Assembly: GCF_002113375.1 (NCBI RefSeq)
Contig: NZ_NEHO01000006.1
Coordinates: 248,001 to 312,000 of the forward strand
Source of the DNA: Pseudomonas sp. R37(2017)
GTDB lineage: Bacteria > Pseudomonadota > Gammaproteobacteria > Pseudomonadales > Pseudomonadaceae
Direction of reading: 5' to 3'
Length of the DNA stretch: 64,000 bases
Positions 28,592 through 50,784 of the stretch are shown piece after piece (position 1 is the stretch's first letter; the number at the start of each line of letters is the position of its first letter). Under the pieces are notes generated by a model. The model saw only the letters and a program-made list of their open reading frames with translations, searched no databases and was not told where the DNA came from. Both the position numbers and the translations under genes were made by a program.

Positions 28592-28731
28592 TCGCAAATC
28601 CTTCCCCGTGGAGCGAGTGAACTACACTTTTCAATTGCTCCATCCAATCGGTAGGCGACGCATGGGCGTTGTTTGCCGCCGCCAGTCGATCCAAAGGCTT
28701 GCCCGTTGCGGCAAACCTGTCGGAGGTCATC

Positions 28732-29187
28732 ATGAAAAGGTTTTCACCGGTCAGCCTGTGCATCGCCCTGTCGGTTTTGAGCGCCCCGGTATGGGCGCAA
28801 ACGGTAGTGCCGATGAAAGGGCAAAGTTCGCAACAAACCCAGGCCGACATGAACGAATGCAACAGCATCGCCGCCAGCCAAAGCACCTCGACGTCGTCCT
28901 CGTCTTCCGGCGGGAGGCTCAAGGGCGCTGCTGCAGGCGCCGCCGCCGGCGCGGCCGCGGCCCAGGTACGCGGCAATCAGCATGACGAGGTTTATGACCG
29001 CGTCGATAGTGATGTGCAACAGGAATACCGCCAGAACCGCGCCAAGGAAACAGCGGCGGCCGGCATGGTGGTCGGTGGTTCACGTCAGCGCCAGGAACGC
29101 CGGGCGGATGCGAAAACCACACAGGCAAACACCGCGACGGCTTACACCAGCTGTTTGCAGGGCAAGGGTTATCAGGTCAACCCTTGA
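28732..29187 (+). CDS. exported glycine-zipper-like protein
   Basis: 151 residues; the ATG at 28732 follows GGAGG. A signal peptide ends VWAQ, and the mature chain starts TVVPMKGQSSQQTQ. A serine tract is followed by an alanine/glycine-rich segment (GRLKGAAAGAAAGAAAAQVR) and then EYRQNRAKETAAAGMVVGGSRQRQ, giving two short glycine-zipper hairpins. It is paralogous to the protein at 38084-38548: both have VVP[ML]KGQ, QHDEVYD or QHENVYD, YRQNRA and a C-terminal S-x-L-Q-x-x-GY motif. Function unknown; the family is usually envelope-associated. Confidence 0.75.
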   Translation: MKRFSPVSLCIALSVLSAPVWAQTVVPMKGQSSQQTQADMNECNSIAASQSTSTSSSSSGGRLKGAAAGAAAGAAAAQVRGNQHDEVYDRVDSDVQQEYRQNRAKETAAAGMVVGGSRQRQERRADAKTTQANTATAYTSCLQGKGYQVNP

Positions 29188-31133: not shown

Positions 31134-31634
31134 TTAAAAAAGAATGTAGGCGGATGCGGTCGTCTGGTTCAGGTCGATCTCTCCGACCTCCAGAACTTCG
31201 TATTCAGCGCGCAGGCCGATGTTGCGGAAGACATCGAGCTCCATGCCGACACCATAGGTCAGGTCAACCCCGGTATCGTCATCGGTGGCGTTGCCGTCGG
31301 CGTCCCAGGCGTGAGCACCGACACTGCCGAATACCCGCAACCGATCACCCAGCGGAAAGCCGATATGGGCGGCAGCCTGGGCCGACTTGCCTTCGAAATC
31401 GATATTGTTGTCCTTGAATTGACCGAGATCGACGTAGGCCCCCTCGAAGGCCAGGTAGCTATTGACGCGATAGCCTGCATAAACCTTGTAGCTGGTGTCC
31501 TCGTCGTCCAGTCTGGATTCTTCGGTCTGTATGCTGCTTACGCCCGCTCCAAGATATAAACCTTTGTCATCAGCGAGCGCCTGAACAGACAGCAGCGATA
31601 GCAGTGAAGCGAAGCCAAGGTTTCGAAGTAGCAT
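31134..31634 (-). CDS. small outer-membrane beta-barrel protein
   Basis: 166 residues. The signal peptide ends VQALA, followed by DDKGLYLGAGVSS. Alternating amphipathic strands with aromatic ends (YKVYAGYRVNSYLAFEGAYVDLG, GVGMELDVFRNIGLRAEYEV) end in a terminal phenylalanine (SAYILF), the normal assembly signal for an outer-membrane barrel of the OmpA/OmpW-like eight-strand type. The first 75 residues resemble the shorter protein at 34701-35033. It is the last gene of the AT-richer minus-strand block. Confidence 0.78.
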   Translation of the reverse strand: MLLRNLGFASLLSLLSVQALADDKGLYLGAGVSSIQTEESRLDDEDTSYKVYAGYRVNSYLAFEGAYVDLGQFKDNNIDFEGKSAQAAAHIGFPLGDRLRVFGSVGAHAWDADGNATDDDTGVDLTYGVGMELDVFRNIGLRAEYEVLEVGEIDLNQTTASAYILF

Positions 31635-31704
31635 GTGTGGTGGAGTCCTTGTACAGGTTTATCTGGTGTTAGGTTTCGGCGAGCATTTGAGGGACCTGGA
31701 GGGG

Positions 31705-33300
31705 TTAATAGAAATCATTGATTGATATTTTTGAGTCGTAAGGCGCGATGTTTGCCGGACATTGAAAATAGCGTCTGGCCAGCGCCTGAACGGGCAGTGC
31801 CTTGGAGAACAACCAGCCTTGCGCCAATAGAACTCCCTCCGAAACCAGGTGCGGCAGTTGCTCGGCAGTCTCGACACCTTCGGCCACGACCTTGAGTCTT
31901 TGCGAGCAGGCCAGTCGGGCAATGTGTCGCCACAGGGCATCCTTGGCCGCGATCCTGTCGTCTGCGATGAACGAGCGATCTATTTTCAGAATGTCGAAAG
32001 GCACTGAATCCAGGAGCGAAAGGTTGGAATAGCCGATACCGAAGTCGTCCACGGCAATGCGATGACCGCATGCCCGAAGCCGTCGCAGTTGCATGGCGGC
32101 AGGCTTCTGATCGAGCATGGTTCTTTCGGTGACTTCAAAGACCATGGCTGACGCCGGCATGCAGTAGGTTGCCAGCACGCTGGCCACATAGTCTGGAAAG
32201 CTCGGGTCCTGAATATCCTGGGCGCAAAGATTGACCGTAATATAGAAGTCCTTGCAGGCCCAAAGGTAAGTGCTGTAATCCTCCGCCACTTGCCGAATCA
32301 CCGAGCGCGTCAGTTTACGGATCAAGTCGGACTTCTCCGCCTCCGCAATGAAAAGCTCCGCAGGCACATGGGTGCCGTTGGTGTTCCAGTGTGAAAGTGA
32401 TTCTGCGCCAACCAGGTAGCCCGTCGTCAAATTGACGATGGGTTGATAGTGAACGCCCAGCGTGTTGGCTTTCAGGGCTCGGCGAAGCCGCGCGGCAGTA
32501 GAGGTATAACGACGCTGGATACACCTTGCGAGCGAGAGCAGCATTGCGAACACGCAGCCAAGGCCAATGAATAATTTGAATTTGAGATCTGTCAGGGCGC
32601 TCAATGGAAGAGAAACAACCGAGATCAATTCATTCCGGTTGCCCGCAAAGGCGATGAGTACCTTGTCTGCCGTGGTCACCAGCTCTTCAAGGTGGAAGGG
32701 CTTGTGCATCGTCAGGGGCGTGGCGGCCGTCGATGCAATGGGAACTGCGCCGCCGGGACCGATCAGGTCCAGTTGCAGGTCCTCGGGAAGCTTCAAGTTG
32801 TCGAGCAGGATCTTCTTGTTTGCCCAGACGTAGGTCGATTGTTCCGACACGATGATAAAGTCGGTGTCCGCGGAAACTGCATGGCCGGAGTCGACCCAAT
32901 AGGTTCGTTTTCCAACGGAAAAACTGCGCTTTTCGTTACTGGCCAGTATCGACGGGAGTTCTTGCCCGTAGGAGGAACAGATCTTGCCATTGGGCAACTG
33001 GATTGCCGCTTGATCGACAAAGCGCAGGTTTTTAACCAGATCGGCCAATTGGGAATATTGCTCGACGGAGCATTCATGACCCGAACGATCAAAATCGCCG
33101 AGAGTTCCCAGTACCTTGTCGATCTGCGCATTGGGCTCCACTTGAGCCGCACGCAGATCGGCATAAACGTTATTCAACTTCCGTGAAATCAATAGCTCTG
33201 CCATTCCTCCGGCACAGAACCATGCGGCCCAACCCGCTGCAGCAATCAGACTTATAGTGACTGCGTGCCTTCCAAGTAACGCTTTAAATGCGGCAACCAT
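31705..33300 (-). CDS. CSS-motif cyclic-di-GMP phosphodiesterase (EAL domain)
   Basis: 531 residues from the ATG at 33300; a GTG at 33336 would add 12. A transmembrane helix near residues 15-35 and another near 240-258 flank a periplasmic CSS-motif domain with the hallmark cysteine pair region KICSSYG. The EAL domain follows with catalytic residues in place: GAESLSHW (ESL instead of EAL, glutamate kept), NLCAQDI, FEVTERTM, VDDFGIGYSNLSLL and VAEGVE. Such proteins sense periplasmic redox or disulfide state and degrade c-di-GMP. A 34-residue membrane peptide gene lies 62 bp upstream. Confidence 0.88.
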   Translation of the reverse strand: MVAAFKALLGRHAVTISLIAAAGWAAWFCAGGMAELLISRKLNNVYADLRAAQVEPNAQIDKVLGTLGDFDRSGHECSVEQYSQLADLVKNLRFVDQAAIQLPNGKICSSYGQELPSILASNEKRSFSVGKRTYWVDSGHAVSADTDFIIVSEQSTYVWANKKILLDNLKLPEDLQLDLIGPGGAVPIASTAATPLTMHKPFHLEELVTTADKVLIAFAGNRNELISVVSLPLSALTDLKFKLFIGLGCVFAMLLSLARCIQRRYTSTAARLRRALKANTLGVHYQPIVNLTTGYLVGAESLSHWNTNGTHVPAELFIAEAEKSDLIRKLTRSVIRQVAEDYSTYLWACKDFYITVNLCAQDIQDPSFPDYVASVLATYCMPASAMVFEVTERTMLDQKPAAMQLRRLRACGHRIAVDDFGIGYSNLSLLDSVPFDILKIDRSFIADDRIAAKDALWRHIARLACSQRLKVVAEGVETAEQLPHLVSEGVLLAQGWLFSKALPVQALARRYFQCPANIAPYDSKISINDFY

Positions 33301-33362
33301 CGAAAAACCCCGAGGTATCAATATTTCACGGTGCACGGTTGTAGTCGTGGATGAGACGTTCT

Positions 33363-33467
33363 TCAGTACCAGTCAATGACCCAGGCCAACAGGATGCCGC
33401 TTGCGTAGACGGCCAGGCACAGTGCGATTTTCTGCTTGAGTGGCAGTGTGTTTATTCGATGATGCAT
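33363..33467 (-). CDS. 34-residue single-pass membrane peptide
   Basis: The ATG at 33467 follows AAGGA by 8 bp. The frame reads MHHRINTLPLKQKIALCLAV then ends LLAWVIDWY at a TGA. A basic N-terminal tail is followed by one transmembrane helix of about 20 residues and a short acidic/aromatic end, so the peptide would be inserted with its N-terminus in the cytoplasm. It lies on the same strand as the EAL gene, 62 bp upstream, and was probably missed by size limits. Function unknown; a regulator or partner of the neighbouring phosphodiesterase is a guess. Confidence 0.55.
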   Translation of the reverse strand: MHHRINTLPLKQKIALCLAVYASGILLAWVIDWY

Positions 33468-33565
33468 GCTTATTTCCTTGAATGGGCAAATAAGCAATGT
33501 TGGGTACCTGTGCTTAATTAAAGGAAATTATTAATCATCATTTGCAGGGCTTGGATGAAGGCCCG

Positions 33566-34579
33566 TTAATCATGATTTCGCTCATCAGCGACCTGGTTGT
33601 AAATGAATGAGGTGATGTTCCAGGTTTTGCCTGAGTGACGCTTGGCCGTTTCCGACGGTGCTTCTCCGTAAGCTATCTGATAGGCCTTGGAGAATCGACC
33701 CAGGTGGTGAAAGTTCCAGAACATTGCGGTTTCCGTTACGGTAGGCCAGGTTTTATTGATCAGGTCGCGACGGGCACTTGCCAGTCTCAAGTTTCTGATG
33801 TAAGCGATTGGCGACATCCCGAACGTTTCAATAAAACCAAAATGCAGGGTGCGGGTAGTGGTTTGAAGCTGCCTTACCAGTGATTTTATGTTGAGTGTTT
33901 TTTTAATATTTTCATGAATGTACTCGATGGCTGCTATCGCCACTTTTCGTCTGGTCGGAACCTTGCGGTTGATGCCACCAGCGGGTGTCAACGACAGCAA
34001 TAGAGAAGCCAGTACCGTACTTTCTATCATTGAACGTTGTGCGTCGCCGAATTGCGGTGATGCGCAATCGTTGATGTCGACGCAGGCAGCGCTGATGGCT
34101 TGAATGGCCAACTGTATGAGCTGAAAATTTTCAGCCTGAAAGCTGTGGTTTTTCCTGTTGGCAAGAATGTCGATGACGCAGTGCTTTTGGCGGCACCGGT
34201 CATAGTGCTCCAGCGTTGTGGTGATGGTGAAAAGCGTTTCGTTAGGTTCGCAGGTGTAATGCACCGATTCATCGCTGTGCAGCACGATGACTTCATTCGG
34301 ACGTAGTTTGTGATTGTTTACGACGGGGCGCCCAATCGGCGCCTGCGAAATGGCGAACGTTACGAACCCGGCAGGAACGGAGCTGACCAGGGTGACGGAA
34401 GAGTCAAACTCAAGGCGACTGCACTGAAGCTCTGGGCTGTGGAAGAGTTTGTGTTGTCGAATGCGCGCCTCATGCTCAGTCGGGATCAGGCTCATTTCCC
34501 AATTGCCAATTGTTCTATTCAGTTGGCTCGGCAAGGCAGAAGACAAATGAAAGATTTCATCGGGCGGTGCAATACTCAT
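33566..34579 (-). CDS. AraC-family transcriptional regulator in the AT-richer block
   Basis: 337 residues. The C-terminal DNA-binding domain contains LNIKSLVRQLQTTTRTLHFG then FIETFGMSPIAYIRNLRLAS, and the second helix-turn-helix ending FWNFHHLGRFSKAYQIAYGE. The N-terminal 220 residues resemble the cupin-like ligand part of AraC regulators only weakly. Codon use is more AT-rich than in most of the window, in line with its neighbours. It sits downstream of a ToxR/ToxS-like pair and upstream of a c-di-GMP phosphodiesterase, which suggests a place in one regulatory chain. Confidence 0.85.
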   Translation of the reverse strand: MSIAPPDEIFHLSSALPSQLNRTIGNWEMSLIPTEHEARIRQHKLFHSPELQCSRLEFDSSVTLVSSVPAGFVTFAISQAPIGRPVVNNHKLRPNEVIVLHSDESVHYTCEPNETLFTITTTLEHYDRCRQKHCVIDILANRKNHSFQAENFQLIQLAIQAISAACVDINDCASPQFGDAQRSMIESTVLASLLLSLTPAGGINRKVPTRRKVAIAAIEYIHENIKKTLNIKSLVRQLQTTTRTLHFGFIETFGMSPIAYIRNLRLASARRDLINKTWPTVTETAMFWNFHHLGRFSKAYQIAYGEAPSETAKRHSGKTWNITSFIYNQVADERNHD

Positions 34580-34700
34580 GAAATTGAAAGCTCATCTGTT
34601 AAAAAAATAGGGTCAAGCCTGACGGGCAGTCATGGGGAAGATACGCGATCGGGCGTCCTTGCTGTCGGTGAGATCGACCCCAATGGCTTTGAATGGCTTG

Positions 34701-35033
34701 TCAGAGTTCGCGGATCAGTTCCAGTTCCGCCGAAAATGCGTACCTGCTGTCCGACGCTGAGTCGTCCATGCGTTGAACGTTGCGCGCGTCGATTGTCGTG
34801 TTGAAGATCTGCGATTGGGGTTTCATCGGGTCAATGGCTGCTGCTGTAAAGGAGTAAAAGTCGTCAATACGATAACCGGTTTTTACCTGATAGCCAGTTT
34901 TCACGGTACTTGGAGCCTTCTTGTTGGTTTCGACACTCGTCAATTTGGCACTGTAAACGCCCTTGTCGTCGGCCATGGCCTTGAGGGAAAGCAATAAACC
35001 AAACGACACGGTGACGAAATTTTTCAGTAGCAT
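34701..35033 (-). CDS. shortened paralogue of the small outer-membrane protein
   Basis: 110 residues. The signal peptide and first mature residues (MLLKNF..., KAMADDKGVYSAKLTSVET) align with the 166-residue protein at 31134-31634 (MLLRNL..., QALADDKGLYLGAGVSSIQT). Similarity continues through YQVKTGYRIDDFYSF and ends near YAFSAELELIREL, where the longer protein still has its last barrel strands. There is no terminal aromatic residue. It may be a truncated gene, or a soluble periplasmic derivative. Confidence 0.6.
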   Translation of the reverse strand: MLLKNFVTVSFGLLLSLKAMADDKGVYSAKLTSVETNKKAPSTVKTGYQVKTGYRIDDFYSFTAAAIDPMKPQSQIFNTTIDARNVQRMDDSASDSRYAFSAELELIREL

Positions 35034-35209
35034 CGAGGCGATTCCTTATTAGCAGTTTGTTCAGGCAGAGCAGAATCTCAATTGCATCTCTGCCACGACT
35101 TGGGCTGAAAATAATCTCACCCCGGTAGCGCCTGCCAAAGTCAATAACTCATATTTGCGAGGTCGCCAGGATGTGGAAATACCCTTTGCCGCGATTTACG
35201 TCATGTGCG

Positions 35210-35509
35210 TCAGAGTAATATGAACGAACTGGCGTAACTCGTGCCGGTATCGGCTTGTGGAGGGGTTGAGAGAGGAAAGTCATCGTCCTGCTCGTCCGCG
35301 TGATACTCATTTTCGCTTTGGATTTTCAGATGCGATAGTTTCTGGCTGTCGTCCGGGTTTGTTTGAATTTCATAATATTCAATGGTCGTGCTTTCGACGG
35401 AGTGCTCATCGTGCGCTAACGCGCATGGAGACATCGCAGACAAAAATGCAACCGCCAGGAATCCGAAACTCGGCGATTTATGAGTTCGCAGGAAATGCAT
35501 GGCTTTCAC
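35210..35509 (-). CDS. small exported protein of unknown function
   Basis: 99 residues from a GTG at 35509, favoured by AGGAGA six bases upstream; an ATG at 35500 is an alternative. The signal peptide ends PCALA, followed by a short acidic mature chain (HDEHSVESTTIEYYEIQ, EYHADEQDDDFPLS) ending in SSFILL. No family recognised. It lies between the ToxS-like gene and the shortened barrel paralogue on the same strand, so it may be part of the regulated output of that block. Confidence 0.6.
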   Translation of the reverse strand: MKAMHFLRTHKSPSFGFLAVAFLSAMSPCALAHDEHSVESTTIEYYEIQTNPDDSQKLSHLKIQSENEYHADEQDDDFPLSTPPQADTGTSYASSFILL

Positions 35510-35692
35510 TTGATTCTCCTGAGTAGGGCATTGTCCCGGACGAGAATCAAGCAGGCTCGATTCCTAAGATTATCGGCGACGAATTTTGACAGGAGAGATG
35601 TTTGATTCAAATCAATAAGCGTTATTTTTGTTCGGGAGATTTGGTGTTGCGAGCCTGTGCCAAGCGGCTGTCCAATCGGTTCGGAATACCGG

Positions 35693-36175
35693 TCAATGGT
35701 TCATGCAGCGCAGGCGGCCAAGTTCATGTACGTAAAAGCACACGGCGCTTTTATCGTATGTCGGAATCAATTCGTAATTCAGGATGGCGCCTTCCTGCAA
35801 GACGTATTGACGTCTGAAAAACAGGTCGGGAGTCTTTTCAATGGCAAAAAGTTCATTGTCCTGGCTGAGTTTGATGTTGCTGACTTTGATTTCGACGTGT
35901 GTACTGCTTTCTCCGATTATATTCGCTGAAATGGTCGCATTGCGGATTTTCCCATTCAGACTTTCCAGAGTGGTTCCAGTGAGTCGACCATGCCCGATCG
36001 TGAGGTACTCTTCGGTATTGAGTTGGTTGAGATCCTCCAGCCATTGCCTTGCTTTTGTTTGATAACTGGTGTTTTCCATGTAATGCGATGGCGAGTAAAA
36101 GAGCGAAAAAACACACAGTGCATTGATCAAAGCAATGATCGGCCAGTGAACGGCTTGCGGGATTTCAAACTTCAT
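35693..36175 (-). CDS. ToxS-like membrane protein coupled to the ToxR-like regulator
   Basis: 160 residues from the ATG at 36175, which overlaps the regulator's TGA (ATGA). One N-terminal transmembrane helix (about 12-30, PIIALINALCVFSLFYS) is followed by an extracytoplasmic domain of about 130 residues with no other membrane segment (RQWLEDLNQLNTEEYLTIG, ISANIIGESSTHVEIKVSN). Size, topology and coupling match ToxS, the periplasmic partner that stabilises ToxR. Sequence similarity to ToxS was not tested, so the call rests on organisation. Confidence 0.65.
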   Translation of the reverse strand: MKFEIPQAVHWPIIALINALCVFSLFYSPSHYMENTSYQTKARQWLEDLNQLNTEEYLTIGHGRLTGTTLESLNGKIRNATISANIIGESSTHVEIKVSNIKLSQDNELFAIEKTPDLFFRRQYVLQEGAILNYELIPTYDKSAVCFYVHELGRLRCMNH

Positions 36176-36993
36176 AAGGTGACTTCCAGACATTGACGAA
36201 TCATCAAGGCGAGGTCTCTTTCGCTGCTGTTCAATTGTAGATTTGCAGTGCTTTGGTCCGGGCGGATACAGGAAACGGAGTAATTGGTTTTATACAGGTT
36301 GATCCAGACCTGGCCCTTCAGGTTTGGCGATAACTGTTCAGTTTGTTTGACCGACAGCTCCATCAGTGCTTTTGCTTCGGCAAGATCGTTGCCCACGGCG
36401 TGTATGACCAATCCATTCCTGTCGATACTCGAAATTTCAATTTTTGGCGTGTCGAAGTCGAATTGAAAAACGGTAAAGGCTACGACTGCCAGCGTAACGA
36501 TGTAAGCGAGCAGTTGAGCCTTTGTAATGCGGGTGGATCTGACCGTTTTGGCTGATGGTGGCAACGGTCCGTCAATACCAGGCGACACTGGTTGCGCAGG
36601 GCTGGGGGCGGGCGGCTGCGCAACTTCCTCTGTGGGTGCCGGTACATCTGCCGCCGCATCGACGATACAGTGCCGGTTGAAGCAATATCCCCGTCGAGGC
36701 ACGGTCATCAGGATTTCGTGATCTCGCCCGTCATTAAGAATATTGCGTAGTGAGAAAACGGTTTGATTCAAACTGCCTGAGGCAACCACGCGGTCGTTCC
36801 AGGTGTAGTCGATGATTTCGTCGCGGCTTTTAGTGACGCCTGGCTCCATGAGCAGCAGGTGCAACAGGCGCGACTCCGCTCTACCCAGCGTGGAATTTTG
36901 CACATCTCCATGGGGTGTTGTAATGCAAAGCACGGCGCTGTCTGGATCGAATACGGCCACAGCGCCATTTTTCAGTTTGAAGGTGTAGCTCAT
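36172..36993 (-). CDS. ToxR/CadC-like transmembrane transcriptional regulator
   Basis: 273 residues from the ATG at 36993, after GGAAGA. Residues about 1-105 form an OmpR-type winged helix (LGRAESRLLHLLLMEPG, SRDEIIDYTWNDRVVAS, SLNQTVFSLRNILND, and MTVPRRGYCF as the wing). A proline-rich linker (about 115-155) leads to one transmembrane helix (about 160-178, LLAYIVTLAVVAFTVFQF) and a periplasmic domain of about 95 residues with two cysteines (SVSCIRPDQ and IRQCLEV) near the C-terminus. This is the ToxR/CadC topology: membrane-bound DNA binding with periplasmic sensing. The next gene encodes a ToxS-like partner. Confidence 0.83.
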   Translation of the reverse strand: MSYTFKLKNGAVAVFDPDSAVLCITTPHGDVQNSTLGRAESRLLHLLLMEPGVTKSRDEIIDYTWNDRVVASGSLNQTVFSLRNILNDGRDHEILMTVPRRGYCFNRHCIVDAAADVPAPTEEVAQPPAPSPAQPVSPGIDGPLPPSAKTVRSTRITKAQLLAYIVTLAVVAFTVFQFDFDTPKIEISSIDRNGLVIHAVGNDLAEAKALMELSVKQTEQLSPNLKGQVWINLYKTNYSVSCIRPDQSTANLQLNSSERDLALMIRQCLEVTL

Positions 36994-38083: not shown

Positions 38084-38548
38084 TCAAGGCAAAACGTCGT
38101 AGCCACGTTGTTGCAGGCAACTGCTGTAGACAGAATTGTTGGCGGCAAGGCTTTGCTCGCTTGCGGCAAGATTCTCTCGACGCGCCTGACGTTGCCTGGA
38201 GGCCCCCACGACGGCGCCGGCAGCCGCGGCGCTGTGCGCCCGGTTCTGGCGATAGTCTTGCTTGGTATCGTCGTCGATCTGGTCATAGACGTTTTCATGC
38301 TGACGGCCCCGGACTTCTGCCGCGGTCGCTCCGGCTACCGCAGCGGTTGCGGCGCCTTTCACACGACCGCCGGATGGCACCGTGCCTTGTACCGGATGTT
38401 GCGCGTTGGCCTGGGACTGGCAGGCGCTGGTGTCCTGCTGGATGGTCTGGGAGGTCTGACCCTTGAGCGGAACCACCGTCGCCGCCAGGGTGCTGGTGCT
38501 CAAGAGCAGCATAAGGACCGATAGGGTATGGGCCAGTATTTTCATCAT
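38084..38548 (-). CDS. exported glycine-zipper-like protein, paralogue of the 28.7 kb gene
   Basis: 154 residues (a second ATG three bases in is equally possible). The signal peptide ends TSTLA; the mature part starts ATVVPLKGQTSQT. It has a Gly/Ala hairpin segment (GRVKGAATAAVAGATAAEVR), RQHENVYDQIDDDTKQDYRQNRA, a second zipper (AAAAGAVVGASRQRQ) and ends SCLQQRGYDVLP. The same blocks occur in the protein at 28732-29187. Two cysteines are conserved between the copies. Function unknown, probably in the cell envelope. Confidence 0.75.
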   Translation of the reverse strand: MMKILAHTLSVLMLLLSTSTLAATVVPLKGQTSQTIQQDTSACQSQANAQHPVQGTVPSGGRVKGAATAAVAGATAAEVRGRQHENVYDQIDDDTKQDYRQNRAHSAAAAGAVVGASRQRQARRENLAASEQSLAANNSVYSSCLQQRGYDVLP

Positions 38549-38660: not shown

Positions 38661-39341
38661 TCAACGCTTGAGGATGAGGGCCTGCATATCGTCTGTCATG
38701 CCTTTGAGTGCAACCTTGAAGTCATTGGCAACAATGGGCTGCTCGGCATTTTCGAGTGTTGCGCCAAACACCTTGCGAACGATCTTCGCAACCGGCATAC
38801 CGGTCTTGGCGTCGATCAGGTTGGCTTCGATGTACATCTCGGCGGTCTGGTCCCGATGGCCGGTGGCTGCTTGTGTTGCTCCGACTATTGCCCCGATTGG
38901 AACGGCTTCATACCAGTGCATGCCTTCGTTGTTGGCACTGACGTGAGTGATCGCGGCTTGCAGGATCAGCGAGCGCGAATCGGTCGGTGCCAGCTGCGGG
39001 TAAGAGACGATCGCATAGCGACGGGCAAAGGCGTTCTTGACACTGTCGCTGGCCATCAACTGCAAGTCTTTCAGTGTCTTCAGGCTGACGCGTTCGGTCG
39101 GCTGGGGTGCTGGATACAGCTCCATCTGCCTGAACACCACGGTGGAGTACGCGCGAGGATCGAACCCCGGCGATACCCAGCGCAATACCTTCTGCTCACT
39201 CGGAGTAGTCTGCTCCTCCAGACCCTGGTAATTGCCCAGGAAGCCCGAGTATTGGTCTTGCTGCGCGACTTTCGAGACACAGCCGACCTGGAATACACAG
39301 CTCAAAGCAATACCCACCATCCATTTTTTCGACATGCCCAT
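38661..39341 (-). CDS. DUF3313-type lipoprotein
   Basis: 226 residues from the ATG at 39341. A signal with lipobox VGC (FQVGC, cysteine near residue 21) is followed by QYSGFLGNYQGLEE and LRWVSPGFDPRAYSTVVF, the start pattern of the DUF3313 lipoprotein family. A small glycine-rich segment (VPIGAIVGATQAATG) lies near the middle. Probably anchored in the outer membrane; function unknown. It is upstream of the glycine-zipper gene on the same strand with a 112 bp gap. Confidence 0.75.
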   Translation of the reverse strand: MGMSKKWMVGIALSCVFQVGCVSKVAQQDQYSGFLGNYQGLEEQTTPSEQKVLRWVSPGFDPRAYSTVVFRQMELYPAPQPTERVSLKTLKDLQLMASDSVKNAFARRYAIVSYPQLAPTDSRSLILQAAITHVSANNEGMHWYEAVPIGAIVGATQAATGHRDQTAEMYIEANLIDAKTGMPVAKIVRKVFGATLENAEQPIVANDFKVALKGMTDDMQALILKR

Positions 39342-39625
39342 GTATTTGGTTCTCAAGTGATGAAGTTGTCATTCGGGTTCCGGCCTGACTCCAGGCATTG
39401 GCCTGGGCGCCCTGTGTCCGGGCACTGTCATTCGCCGGTCGGTTACGCAAAGCAGGTGCTCGCACGCCGTTCAATGCGGGCCGAATGCTGCCCATGGCAG
39501 CGGGATAATCCGAATCAATAACCCTCAAAAACTGTCAAACACATGGCCAGGCAGGATTGCACATTGATTACTGTTGCCTACGCTATCGCTTTACAACGCG
39601 GTTTGGTGTCTAAAGGAGAGTGTGC

Positions 39626-48768: not shown

Positions 48769-49572
48769 TCAGTTTTTCTTCTTGATTAATTTATTGATGT
48801 AGTATTTCAGGCTCAAACGATCTTTTGGCCTTGGTTTGTAGTGGGTTTTGTTTCTTTGTGTGGGGTCGATCGCCATGGTTGCGGCGGTATAGTAGTAAAG
48901 CGCTATTGACCTGCGGGTGATGTGCTCTGGAGTCGTCAAAGGTTCTGGGTGCCCATGATTGCTGTCTTTGTCTGTGTTGAAAATGACGCAGCGATTGTAA
49001 ATGGGCAGGACTTTCTTGAGACAAGTCTTCATGCCGACATCCCAAAGCTCCAGGTTGCCGCCGTATTCTTCTTGCCAGTCTTCATTCAGATAAATGATGA
49101 CATTCAGTCTGCGCTCGACATTCAGCTTTTTGTTCAGCCTGAAGTCCGAGTGCACGCCCAGGAAACCACCGCTTTTCGTTTCATGCAGGCCGCCACCTGT
49201 AAAGTAGGGGTCGGGTATCAAACCTTGAATGCCTGTTAGTTTTTCAAGAAACTGCAACATCGGTGCCGAGTTAAAGGCGTTGAAGACACTCTTCAAAAAG
49301 GGGGTGCATTCGTTGGGGCTGATTTGACGTTTCAGTTGACCTTTGTAGCCGCGCTCATAGAGCATTTCATTGTTGGTCGGCTCGCTTGGGAAGTGCGAAC
49401 AGATACTCGAAATCAGCTCTTCATGCAAGAAATTGTCGATGACTATATGTGGAAATGGCGTAGCCTGAACATAGTGGCTGGTCAATGAGTCGCCAAGGGC
49501 GCTGGCAGCGCTTTGGTTGAAATCAAGCTCCGGGGACAAGGTGATAGGTAGTGCTTGAGTGATGGGTGCCAT
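48769..49572 (-). CDS. 2-oxoglutarate/Fe(II)-dependent oxygenase
   Basis: 267 residues from the ATG at 49572 (GGAG upstream). The iron-binding set is visible: H141 and D143 in GVHSDFR and a distal histidine at about 206-208 (DSNHGHPEP), followed by an arginine region (RRSIALYYYT) for 2-oxoglutarate. The fold is of the prolyl-4-hydroxylase-like 2OG-Fe(II) type. The gene follows a family-2 glycosyltransferase and shares its AT-richer composition, so the target may be a surface glycan or a modified sugar; substrate unknown. Confidence 0.82.
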   Translation of the reverse strand: MAPITQALPITLSPELDFNQSAASALGDSLTSHYVQATPFPHIVIDNFLHEELISSICSHFPSEPTNNEMLYERGYKGQLKRQISPNECTPFLKSVFNAFNSAPMLQFLEKLTGIQGLIPDPYFTGGGLHETKSGGFLGVHSDFRLNKKLNVERRLNVIIYLNEDWQEEYGGNLELWDVGMKTCLKKVLPIYNRCVIFNTDKDSNHGHPEPLTTPEHITRRSIALYYYTAATMAIDPTQRNKTHYKPRPKDRLSLKYYINKLIKKKN

Positions 49573-49648
49573 TATCGCTCCAATAACTTGATATAAAGAC
49601 TTGCAGGGGACATGAAATAGCCATGAGCAGGTTGCGTCTGCTCGTCGC

Positions 49649-50458
49649 TTAGCTTTTTCTGTCATCCTTGTTCAGGCGCTTGAGGATGTTGTTGTACATT
49701 TTGGTTCGTCTATGAGACTTGTCATAACCGCCAGCCGCTGCCACAGTGCCGGCTTGAATGTGATCAAGATAGCTGAAGATTTTACGCGGCGATAACATTT
49801 CCACGGTATAGCCAAGCTCGGTCATGCGGTCCTGGAGAGTATATCCTGGTACGCGATCATCCATGGAAAAATGCATGTCATGTTGCTTGATAAGTTTGCA
49901 GTTCCATAATGTGCAGAAGCTTTTCAAGTAGACTTCCCTGTACGGTTTTGGTTCTCTTGAGCGTAATCCCATGGTGATTTTCAGATGTCTGTAATGATGC
50001 TTGAACAGTCGTGAGCTAAAGCGCCAAAGCGTTCTTGCAGTACCACGATTGATTTGCTCGACACAGCCCACGGCCACGGTTTTCGGGTTTTTCAAGCACT
50101 TGTTCAACATCATTGGGAAAACGTTTTTGTCGAAAACAAATGTATCTGTGTGCATCAGGAATAAATAATCAGTTTCAACTCGTTGCAAAACCAGATCCAG
50201 TGCCTTGCCATGTGCGATGTGGCCAGCTTCTGGTCCAGGAGCAGAGCGCTCGATTAAATTGATCCAGTCAAGGGTTCGTAAGTATTCAGTGCTTTCATCG
50301 GCGGAGTTGTTGTCAACTACCCATATTGGAGTGTTGTCGTTGCCTAAGTGTTGGTGCAGTAAGTCCAGGCATATCTTGGTGATTTCGGGTGTTTTGTAAT
50401 TCACTATGACTATGCTGAAGGATTTGCAGTTTTCAGCCGTCGTATCGGGATTGGTCAT
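49649..50458 (-). CDS. family-2 glycosyltransferase
   Basis: 269 residues from the ATG at 50458; a TTG at 50473 would add five. GT-A fold with FSIVIVNYKTPEITKICLDL, the nucleotide-binding acidic pair WVVDNNSADESTEYLR and the metal-binding region LMHTDTFVFDKN (DxD-like HTD). It lacks membrane helices, so it acts in the cytoplasm. It is followed 76 bp later by the oxygenase gene. The pair is AT-richer than its surroundings and probably acquired together for surface-polysaccharide or O-antigen decoration. Confidence 0.82.
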   Translation of the reverse strand: MTNPDTTAENCKSFSIVIVNYKTPEITKICLDLLHQHLGNDNTPIWVVDNNSADESTEYLRTLDWINLIERSAPGPEAGHIAHGKALDLVLQRVETDYLFLMHTDTFVFDKNVFPMMLNKCLKNPKTVAVGCVEQINRGTARTLWRFSSRLFKHHYRHLKITMGLRSREPKPYREVYLKSFCTLWNCKLIKQHDMHFSMDDRVPGYTLQDRMTELGYTVEMLSPRKIFSYLDHIQAGTVAAAGGYDKSHRRTKMYNNILKRLNKDDRKS

Positions 50459-50784
50459 TGTTTGTTTGCTCAATGGTGCTTTAATTGTTTTTAGCGGTAA
50501 TTGAACCTGTATCCGGCTTTTCGCTTGTTCTCCGCGAAAAATCCTGCGCGGCTATAGAGCTCGGATTGTCAGGCCGCATTGTCATGAATAATAGCCGTGG
50601 TTCACCCAGACCTGAAGGAGAGCAGTTGAAAAGGATCGCATCCTATAAGGATCTGCTATACAGGTAAACAACCATGACCTGATTCGTTATGGCAGCAGGC
50701 CTGTCAGTGAATACAGCCTCGGTTGTAGACGCTGGCAGGGTCTGCTGCTGGTCGACTTCTGCGTGTCATCGAAACAACCCGGCG
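50459..50784. other. 326 bp gap with no supported gene
   Basis: AT-rich on the left (upstream of the glycosyltransferase), GC-richer on the right. A plus-strand frame at 50485-50667 lacks a ribosome site. No repeat seen. Confidence 0.4.

What the first reader, a model, noticed from the sequence alone, without database searches (positions are those of the whole stretch)
31134..36993. ToxR-ToxS-AraC-EAL-outer membrane protein block, a possible virulence-type regulatory cascade
An AT-richer minus-strand run holds a ToxR/CadC-like regulator coupled (ATGA) to a ToxS-like protein, then small exported proteins, an AraC regulator, a membrane peptide, a CSS-EAL phosphodiesterase and a small beta-barrel. 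In Vibrio, ToxR/ToxS control an AraC protein (ToxT) and outer-membrane proteins, and c-di-GMP turnover acts in the same network. A complete set in a fluorescent Pseudomonas seems unusual.
Basis: partly seen in the sequence, partly recalled or inferred. Interest (0 to 1): 0.7.

Follow-up and report, generated by a model that had tools for sequence, protein, structure and literature searches.

The report
Self-contained membrane-sensor gene cassette
A soil-type Pseudomonas carries a compact gene block in which a two-protein membrane sensor, built like the bile sensors of cholera bacteria, probably switches on its own neighbours (outer-membrane proteins, a tiny membrane peptide and a signalling enzyme) rather than a virulence programme.

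Summary
R (36172-36993) is a ToxR/CadC-type membrane regulator. Its overlapping partner S (35693-36175) shows no sequence match to ToxS, but its model is closest to VtrC (Z 13.1) and ToxS (Z 11.4): a co-component pair. S is in 14 of 249 genus genomes, all with R; OMP1 (13 of 249) and this AraC (11 of 249) occur only in those. New here: a 34-codon membrane peptide in 29 of 29 named relatives, and an operator-like box before OMP1, the peptide and sec99, weaker before OMP2 and, in close relatives, R, not before AraC. It also stands before the OMP1 genes of two genomes without this AraC. The closest matches lie in cassettes. Best reading: an envelope-sensing module with a local regulon; a virulence cascade is not supported. 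Low GC is shared by the 22 relatives measured. VtrC-like proteins of Pseudomonas are already in print (PMC9214523), so the pair is no new kind; cassette, box and cysteine hairpin make a variant. Ligand, DNA binding and regulation are untested.

The parts
36172..36993 (-). R: membrane-anchored winged-helix regulator (ToxR/CadC/VtrA type), 273 aa
   Evidence: Trans_reg_C E 9.7e-12; NCBIfam CadC model E 1.1e-12 but far below its cut-off; PDB sequence hits ToxR DBD 1.3e-9, CadC DBD 1.1e-7; model: ToxR DBD 8b4b_X E 3e-5, VtrA chain 5kew_E E 7.7e-3
35693..36175 (-). S: partner, one N-terminal TM helix plus 8-stranded lipocalin-like periplasmic barrel, 160 aa
   Evidence: model pLDDT 76, pTM 0.62; VtrC 5kev_B Z 13.1, ToxS 8alo_B Z 11.4, 8u2f_A Z 10.4, best other row Z 9.3; Cys146 and Cys157 invariant in 29 of 29 rows and in 11 of 11 rows of a divergent set
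35603..35627 (-). operator-like box before sec99
   Evidence: found by a matrix trained on OMP1/pep34 sites only: 23.9 bits; 24.2 with the window's clade left out, null maximum 16.5
35210..35509 (-). sec99: small acidic exported protein
   Evidence: hit in 22 of 29 named loci; dN/dS 0.30
35132..35156 (-). weak operator-like box before OMP2
   Evidence: 8.5 bits in the window, 6.9 with its clade left out, i.e. within the null; above 12 bits in 14 of 29 loci with an OMP2
34701..35033 (-). OMP2: 110-aa shortened paralogue of OMP1
   Evidence: in 27 of 29 named loci; the hits in L089 and L090 are OMP1 itself
33566..34579 (-). AraC-family regulator, 337 aa
   Evidence: HTH_18 E 1e-17; 11 of 249 genus genomes at E<=1e-40, all among the 14 with S
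33519..33543 (-). operator-like box before pep34
   Evidence: 31.1 bits (part of the training set); 21.1 with the window's clade left out, null maximum 16.5
33363..33467 (-). pep34: 34-aa single-TM peptide
   Evidence: hit in 29 of 29 named loci; conserved LPLKxK..C..Y..G..LAW; dN/dS 0.21
31705..33336 (-). CSS-EAL c-di-GMP phosphodiesterase
   Evidence: EAL E 4.2e-54; hit in 20 of 29 named loci, 4 of them shortened to 219-334 aa
31706..31730 (-). operator-like box before OMP1 (overlaps the 3' end of EAL)
   Evidence: 39.9 bits (part of the training set); 39.8 with the window's clade left out; above 30 bits in 6 of the 9 named loci without EAL
31134..31634 (-). OMP1: OmpA-type 8-strand outer-membrane barrel, 166 aa
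   Evidence: OMP_b-brl E 1.4e-20; PDB OmpA E 3.1e-10; 13 of 249 genomes at E<=1e-15, all among the 14 with S
38661..39356 (-). DUF3313 protein, outer part of the conserved neighbourhood
   Evidence: PF11769 E 2.1e-42; upstream of R on the same strand in 25 of 29 named loci, two of them at 25% identity; after S in L060 (PF11769 E 9e-26), a 28% tblastn piece at that place in L061

Best explanation
The block is a self-contained envelope-sensing module built round a co-component pair of the VtrA/VtrC-ToxR/ToxS superfamily. S, a membrane-tethered periplasmic lipocalin-like barrel, pairs with the periplasmic domain of R and senses an envelope signal (a hydrophobic ligand and/or periplasmic redox state); R, still in the membrane, binds a ~25-bp box (AAATAnnAnTnAnTgAnTTnnATCA) that overlaps the presumed -35 region and turns on pep34(-EAL), OMP1, sec99, OMP2(-AraC) and, in close relatives, itself. 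Output: changed outer-membrane barrels and small envelope proteins plus, where EAL is intact, a local drop in c-di-GMP. Shown here: gene content, fold of S, co-occurrence, purifying selection, the box and its places. Inferred: R/S heterodimer, ligand, R as the binder of the box, activation, the outputs.
For: S model: VtrC and ToxS head the VIA-align list with a gap to other lipocalins; VtrC heads Foldseek's. R matches ToxR DBD and, weakly, VtrA periplasmic chains. R-S 4-bp overlap in 29 of 29 named loci. OMP1 13 of 249 and AraC 11 of 249, all inside the 14 with S. Box: a matrix trained on OMP1+pep34 sites finds, outside its training set, sec99 sites above 12 bits in 23 of 24 loci and OMP2 sites in 14 of 29, AraC 0 of 31; trained without the window's clade, the window's three best hits on both strands are OMP1, sec99, pep34 at 39.8, 24.2, 21.1 against a null maximum of 16.5. 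Present before the OMP1 genes in L060 and L061, genomes without this AraC. Strict pattern at <=1 mismatch: 14 sites in 26 genomes, all in cassettes, none in the 12 genomes without S. A -10-like element at a constant 41-47 bases from the start of the box (by eye).
Against: No binding or expression data. In the window the box is weak before OMP2 and R (within the null), and a matrix from far OMP1 sites alone scores the window's pep34 site 11.7, below its null maximum of 15.5. L061's site (17.4) is just under the largest of 60 null maxima (17.9). G089, G015 and G055, which have R and S, have no match of either pattern in the cassette at <=2 mismatches. The broad pattern has 11 of its 39 matches outside cassettes, one of them with a single mismatch in G172, which lacks the cassette. 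The box is A/T-rich and not a clean direct repeat, and could be read by another protein. In Foldseek's order a rice fibrillin stands third among the matches of S. The R model's pTM is 0.42; no complex was predicted. EAL is missing in 9 of 29 named loci and shortened in 4 more, so c-di-GMP is not a core output.
Confidence: 0.68

Rival explanations
1. A ToxR-ToxS-ToxT-like virulence or host-colonisation cascade: R/S turn on AraC, which turns on exported factors elsewhere.
For: Same kinds of parts as in Vibrio; AraC is hit in 29 of 29 named loci.
Against: No box before AraC in 31 loci (AraC may be read through from OMP2); closest box matches lie in cassettes; AraC is missing while R, S and OMP1 stay in L060 and L061; no virulence family above its cut-off found in the block.
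Confidence: 0.1
2. The box is bound by a general or other factor (AraC of the cassette, IHF, or Anr), and R/S control something else.
For: By eye the box core resembles the IHF core (recalled consensus) at OMP1 and pep34, and TTGAT-N4-ATCAA (Anr, recalled) at the window's sec99 site (sequences); AraC is present in most loci; the box has partial dyad symmetry (opposite-strand scores at the same places), which a head-to-tail winged-helix pair does not need.
Against: By eye the Anr spacing fails at pep34, OMP2 and far sec99 sites, and OMP2 sites do not fit IHF; the box stays where AraC is absent.
Confidence: 0.2
3. A recently acquired genomic island of unrelated cargo genes, AT-rich because foreign.
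For: GC 0.515 against 0.597; patchy, 14 of 249; G172 has the MscS gene at 87-88% but no cassette; left flank differs between lineages.
Against: Low GC is shared by 22 of 22 relatives measured (0.467-0.549) and the genes are under purifying selection; distances of the cassette genes and of the right-flank gene DUF3313 correlate nearly as well as those within the cassette (R-S 0.90, R-DUF3313 0.85); no plasmid match for S.
Confidence: 0.15

Closest known systems
VtrA/VtrC of Vibrio parahaemolyticus
   Same: Neighbouring gene pair; wHTH-TM-periplasmic regulator plus lipocalin-like partner; S model closest to VtrC
   Different: No sequence match among PDB chains at E<=10; presumed targets here are a barrel, a peptide and an EAL gene, not a secretion system; invariant cysteine pairs in R and S, whereas VtrA has no such cysteines (PMC10624426, passages)
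ToxR/ToxS of Vibrio cholerae
   Same: DBD sequence match 1.3e-9; S fold Z 11.4 to 8alo_B; outer-membrane proteins as presumed targets
   Different: S not related by sequence; closest box matches only in the cassette; the S family found only in Pseudomonas (29 of 29 named loci; 1 of 293 genomes of the order, the window's own)
VtrC-like proteins of Pseudomonas (Kinch et al. 2022, PMC9214523; passages, section 7)
   Same: Reported as a cluster split from FidL, one P. fluorescens C1 pair overlapping; ours may be part of it
   Different: Cassette, box, peptide and cysteine hairpin are not in the passages and section that I saw
Other R-S-like pairs in Pseudomonas (L019-L026, L028, L032-L034)
   Same: Regulator followed by a single-TM partner of about 150-160 aa with a C-terminal Cys-x(9-10)-Cys hairpin, seen by eye in 12 of the 16 loci L019-L034
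   Different: Five of these partners aligned are 15-17% identical to S; their neighbourhoods were not studied

Membership tests
Co-component (VtrA/VtrC-ToxR/ToxS) superfamily | N-terminal OmpR/ToxR-type winged helix | tested here: met
Co-component (VtrA/VtrC-ToxR/ToxS) superfamily | single TM helix then a VtrA-like periplasmic alpha/beta domain | tested here: met
   model helix 158-177 then bb-a-bbb-a; 5kew_E E 7.7e-3 and 5kev_A E 1e-2, ranks 33 and 46 behind winged-helix chains; model pTM 0.42, so moderate
Co-component (VtrA/VtrC-ToxR/ToxS) superfamily | adjacent partner with lipocalin-like eight-stranded periplasmic barrel | tested here: met
   4-bp overlap
Co-component (VtrA/VtrC-ToxR/ToxS) superfamily | obligate heterodimer with a ligand pocket | not testable with these tools
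   no complex prediction or assay
FidL/YqeJ subfamily of partners | disulfide between N-terminal and C-terminal barrel strands (as described in PMC9214523) | tested here: not met
   both invariant periplasmic cysteines (146, 157) lie in the last two strands of the model
ToxS proper (Vibrionaceae) | sequence similarity to ToxS | tested here: not met
   no Pfam hit at E<=1; profile search of PDB sequences lists no ToxS or VtrC at E<=10
ToxT | AraC protein similar to ToxT over its length | tested here: inconclusive
   phmmer against PDB lists only 3mn2, in the HTH part, at E<=0.001
CSS-EAL phosphodiesterase (PdeC type) | periplasmic part with two Cys, one in a CSS motif, and an EAL domain | tested here: met
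   ECS...ICSSYG and EAL residues by eye in the alignment; EAL E 4.2e-54, Pfam CSS-motif model not listed at E<=1; definition from PMC8846402 passages
CSS-EAL phosphodiesterase (PdeC type) | c-di-GMP hydrolysis | not testable with these tools
   no assay

The most novel reading that the evidence does not exclude
Soil pseudomonads use the ToxRS/VtrAC receptor design for a private envelope switch: the pair reads a non-bile ligand and/or periplasmic thiol state through cysteine pairs in R (242/268) and S (146/157), drives a dedicated operator repeated across at least three promoters of one cassette, and is tuned by a conserved 34-aa membrane peptide; a redox-sensitive CSS-EAL enzyme in the same cassette couples the same thiol signal to c-di-GMP. 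Virulence use in Vibrio would then be one adaptation of an older envelope-homeostasis device.
Probability: 0.25. Interest if true: 0.65.

Novelty: new variant of a known kind. Interest (0 to 1): 0.47.

Why it matters
Co-component receptors are known mainly as virulence switches of enteric bacteria, the best studied of which sense bile (PMC9214523, PMC10624426, passages). A version in plant- and soil-associated Pseudomonas with a predicted operator and a fixed set of neighbours would give a safe, small, genetically tractable model of how a DNA-binding protein that stays in the membrane finds its promoters, and of what such receptors sense outside a gut. It also adds a conserved 34-aa membrane peptide of a size that annotation easily misses.

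Tried and rejected
Tried without result: Pfam and NCBIfam for S, sec99 and OMP2 (one chance-level hit for S in NCBIfam); PDB sequence search for S (nine chance-level rows); plasmid search for S (no match); S profile in 293 genomes of the order (1 of 293, the window's own; seven other genomes of the genus were in that draw and had none). Direct-repeat periodicity of the box: shifts 4, 10 and 13 score alike, so no clear repeat unit. The only match to the strict pattern outside the cassette in the window's genome (two mismatches, contig C12) is found in 22 of 26 genomes, with and without the cassette, so it was dropped as unrelated.

Considered and rejected: Anr box as a general rule (fits only the window-type sec99 site, by eye); EAL 3' coding constraint as the cause of the OMP1 box (above 30 bits in 6 of the 9 named loci without EAL; L089 16.9, L087 12.2, L082 none); simple insertion of the cassette beside the MscS gene (about 0.9 and 2.8 Mb apart in G214 and G015, on different contigs in G137; G172 has MscS without the cassette).

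Rows left out before counts: dN/dS used 11 close relatives and 9 chosen far ones; GC used these plus L089 and L090, i.e. 22 of the 28 distinct named loci. L058-L061, L089 and L090 were not in the distance correlations (29 loci). L068 was left out of the scripts as a duplicate of L050 (G021), except the tallies. Sites entered the matrix only if they matched a starting consensus at 15 or more of 25 places. The query named g37654 had a wrong start and held two stops; its hits are not used. The R query had one residue too many, and the S query six (166 aa). In the R fold list the periplasmic domain was barely tested because the DNA-binding domain fills the rows.
Full report
What is there. The minus strand from 36993 to 31134 reads R, S, sec99, OMP2, AraC, pep34, EAL, OMP1. 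The window lies in a 6.03-Mb genome that I take for Pseudomonas because its nearest named loci are; the closest by S is P. laurylsulfativorans AP3_22, 96%. R has an OmpR/ToxR-type DNA-binding domain, one predicted membrane helix and a periplasmic domain. S has a membrane helix and eight strands.

Is S a ToxS? By sequence no: no Pfam family at E<=1, no ToxS or VtrC among PDB sequences at E<=10 with a 29-row profile. By fold yes at superfamily level: Foldseek's two best hits are VtrC 5kev_B (2.0e-4) and 5kew_B (3.1e-4), followed by a rice fibrillin (3.6e-4, rmsd 12) and more VtrC chains; VIA-align gives VtrC Z 13.1, 12.5, 12.1, ToxS 11.4 and 10.4, the next row 9.3. R's periplasmic part is matched by VtrA chains 5kew_E and 5kev_A at E about 0.01, modest because the R model has pTM 0.42. 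I therefore place the pair in the co-component superfamily described by Kinch et al. (PMC9214523; passages, the whole of section 7). That paper already mentions VtrC-like sequences in Pseudomonas and an overlapping pair in P. fluorescens C1, and that PAO1 has none. Whether that pair is this family I could not tell. The listings held no other title that I recognised as describing this cassette. Papers opened: PMC9214523 as said; PMC10269533, PMC8846402 and PMC10624426 as passages only.

Cysteines. R Cys242 and Cys268 and S Cys146 and Cys157 are invariant in 29 of 29 rows each. In the S model both lie in the last two strands, unlike the N-to-C-strand disulfide described for FidL-type partners. 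In an alignment of the window's S with ten other partners, down to 15% identity, only these two cysteines and the first Met are invariant. R-like regulators occur in 27 of 249 genomes at E<=1e-10; of the 16 loci that are not this cassette (L019-L034) 12 show, by eye, a following single-TM partner with such a hairpin (L027's end was not shown, L029-L031 showed none). So co-component pairs are spread in Pseudomonas and this one is a subfamily.

Distribution. S in 14 of 249 genus genomes, R above threshold in all 14, OMP1 in 13 of 249, AraC in 11 of 249 at E<=1e-40, all within the 14. In the order, 1 of 293, the window's own. In the 29 named loci found with S: R, S, AraC, pep34, OMP1 hit in 29 of 29; OMP2 27; sec99 22; EAL 20, four of them shortened to 219-334 aa; DUF3313 25, two at 25% identity, and L067 ends too soon to tell. 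In L089 and L090 AraC stands after OMP1, and L089's is 272 aa; in L058 (G088) it is 131 aa. In the distant L060 and L061 (R and S 32-37% identical) the order is R, S, a DUF3313 stretch, OMP1, with no AraC. The stable core is thus R, S, OMP1 and a DUF3313 protein nearby; EAL is an accessory that seems to decay by in-frame deletion (by eye), and sec99 and OMP2 belong to the main clade. G055 has R and S but no OMP1.

Age. Cassette GC is 0.467-0.549 in 22 of 22 relatives measured, flanks 0.565-0.627. Mean dN/dS against 11 close relatives: S 0.06, AraC 0.12, OMP1 0.16, R 0.17, pep34 0.21, EAL 0.21, sec99 0.30, OMP2 0.30; against 9 far ones 0.09-0.33, resting on dS near or above 1 and so less safe, with one pep34 value of 0.70. 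Distances of R, S, OMP1 and the flanking DUF3313 correlate at 0.82-0.90. So a recent foreign origin is not supported, although the presence is patchy, G172 lacks the cassette beside a close MscS, and the left flank changes.

The box. Aligning upstream regions of pep34 and OMP1 showed the same A/T-rich element in the same orientation at -72 to -77 and mostly -91 to -97 from the start codons. A matrix from 37 distinct OMP1 and pep34 sites scored above 12 bits: OMP1 30 of 31 loci, pep34 29 of 31, and, not used in training, sec99 23 of 24, OMP2 14 of 29 (L089 and L090, where the hit is OMP1, taken out), R 9 of 31, all in the window's clade, AraC 0 of 31. In the window: OMP1 39.9, pep34 31.1, sec99 23.9, OMP2 8.5, R 3.4 bits. 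With the window's clade left out of training the first three remain the best hits (39.8, 21.1, 24.2) against a null maximum of 16.5 in 15 runs of 120 kb. Trained on far OMP1 alone: OMP1 40.8, sec99 18.1, pep34 11.7, null maximum 15.5; on far pep34 alone: OMP1 27.4, sec99 23.2, pep34 22.7, null maximum 21.8. In the nine named loci without EAL the OMP1 box is above 30 bits in six, 16.9 in L089, 12.2 in L087 and missing in L082, so it is not there for coding reasons.

Reach of the regulon. Strict pattern, <=1 mismatch: 14 sites in 26 genomes, all in cassettes; none in the 12 genomes without S. Broad 25-base pattern, <=2 mismatches: 39 sites, 28 in cassettes, 7 elsewhere in the 14 genomes with the pair, 4 in the 12 without (one of them, in G172, with a single mismatch), 3 for the reversed control; the 10 exact matches are all in cassettes. 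G089, G015 and G055 show no cassette site with either pattern. A regulon beyond the cassette through weaker sites is not excluded.

Mechanism. A -10-like stretch lies 41-47 bases after the start of the box at the OMP1, pep34, sec99 and OMP2 promoters (by eye), which would put the box over the -35 region, where OmpR/PhoB-type activators commonly sit (recalled). ToxR is reported to bind direct repeats (PMC10624426, passages); here the repeat unit is unclear. CSS-EAL enzymes are reported as periplasmic redox switches (PMC8846402, passages), so the cysteine pairs of R, S and EAL could share a thiol signal; this is inference.

Verdict. Best filed as a new variant of the co-component kind, with a testable operator.

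Noticed in passing
33363-33467 (-): A 34-codon single-TM peptide gene with its own box, hit in 29 of 29 named relatives, mostly directly before EAL or OMP1; perhaps unannotated (not checked).
   Followed up: partly
28669-29187 (+) and 38084-38548 (-): Two related small exported proteins (weak glycine-zipper match for the second) stand on either side of the cassette and the MscS gene; relatives' copies of the second are 52-53% identical to the first.
   Followed up: no
L089:9736-10206: P. fluorescens C2 has a 156-aa protein that looks receiver-like by eye between pep34 and OMP1 in the cassette; no Pfam hit at E<=1.
   Followed up: no
L019-L026, L028, L032-L034: A wider set of regulator/partner pairs in Pseudomonas with a C-terminal Cys-x(9-10)-Cys hairpin; targets unknown. 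G137 has two such pairs side by side (L033, L034) besides the cassette.
   Followed up: partly
L053:11627-12469: A protein with a start resembling an IS3-type transposase (by eye) lies between the 37654-type gene and R in G214.
   Followed up: no
48769-50473 (-): A second AT-rich stretch (GC 0.48-0.51) holds a family 2 glycosyltransferase and a 298-aa protein that looks like a 2-oxoglutarate oxygenase (by eye).
   Followed up: no
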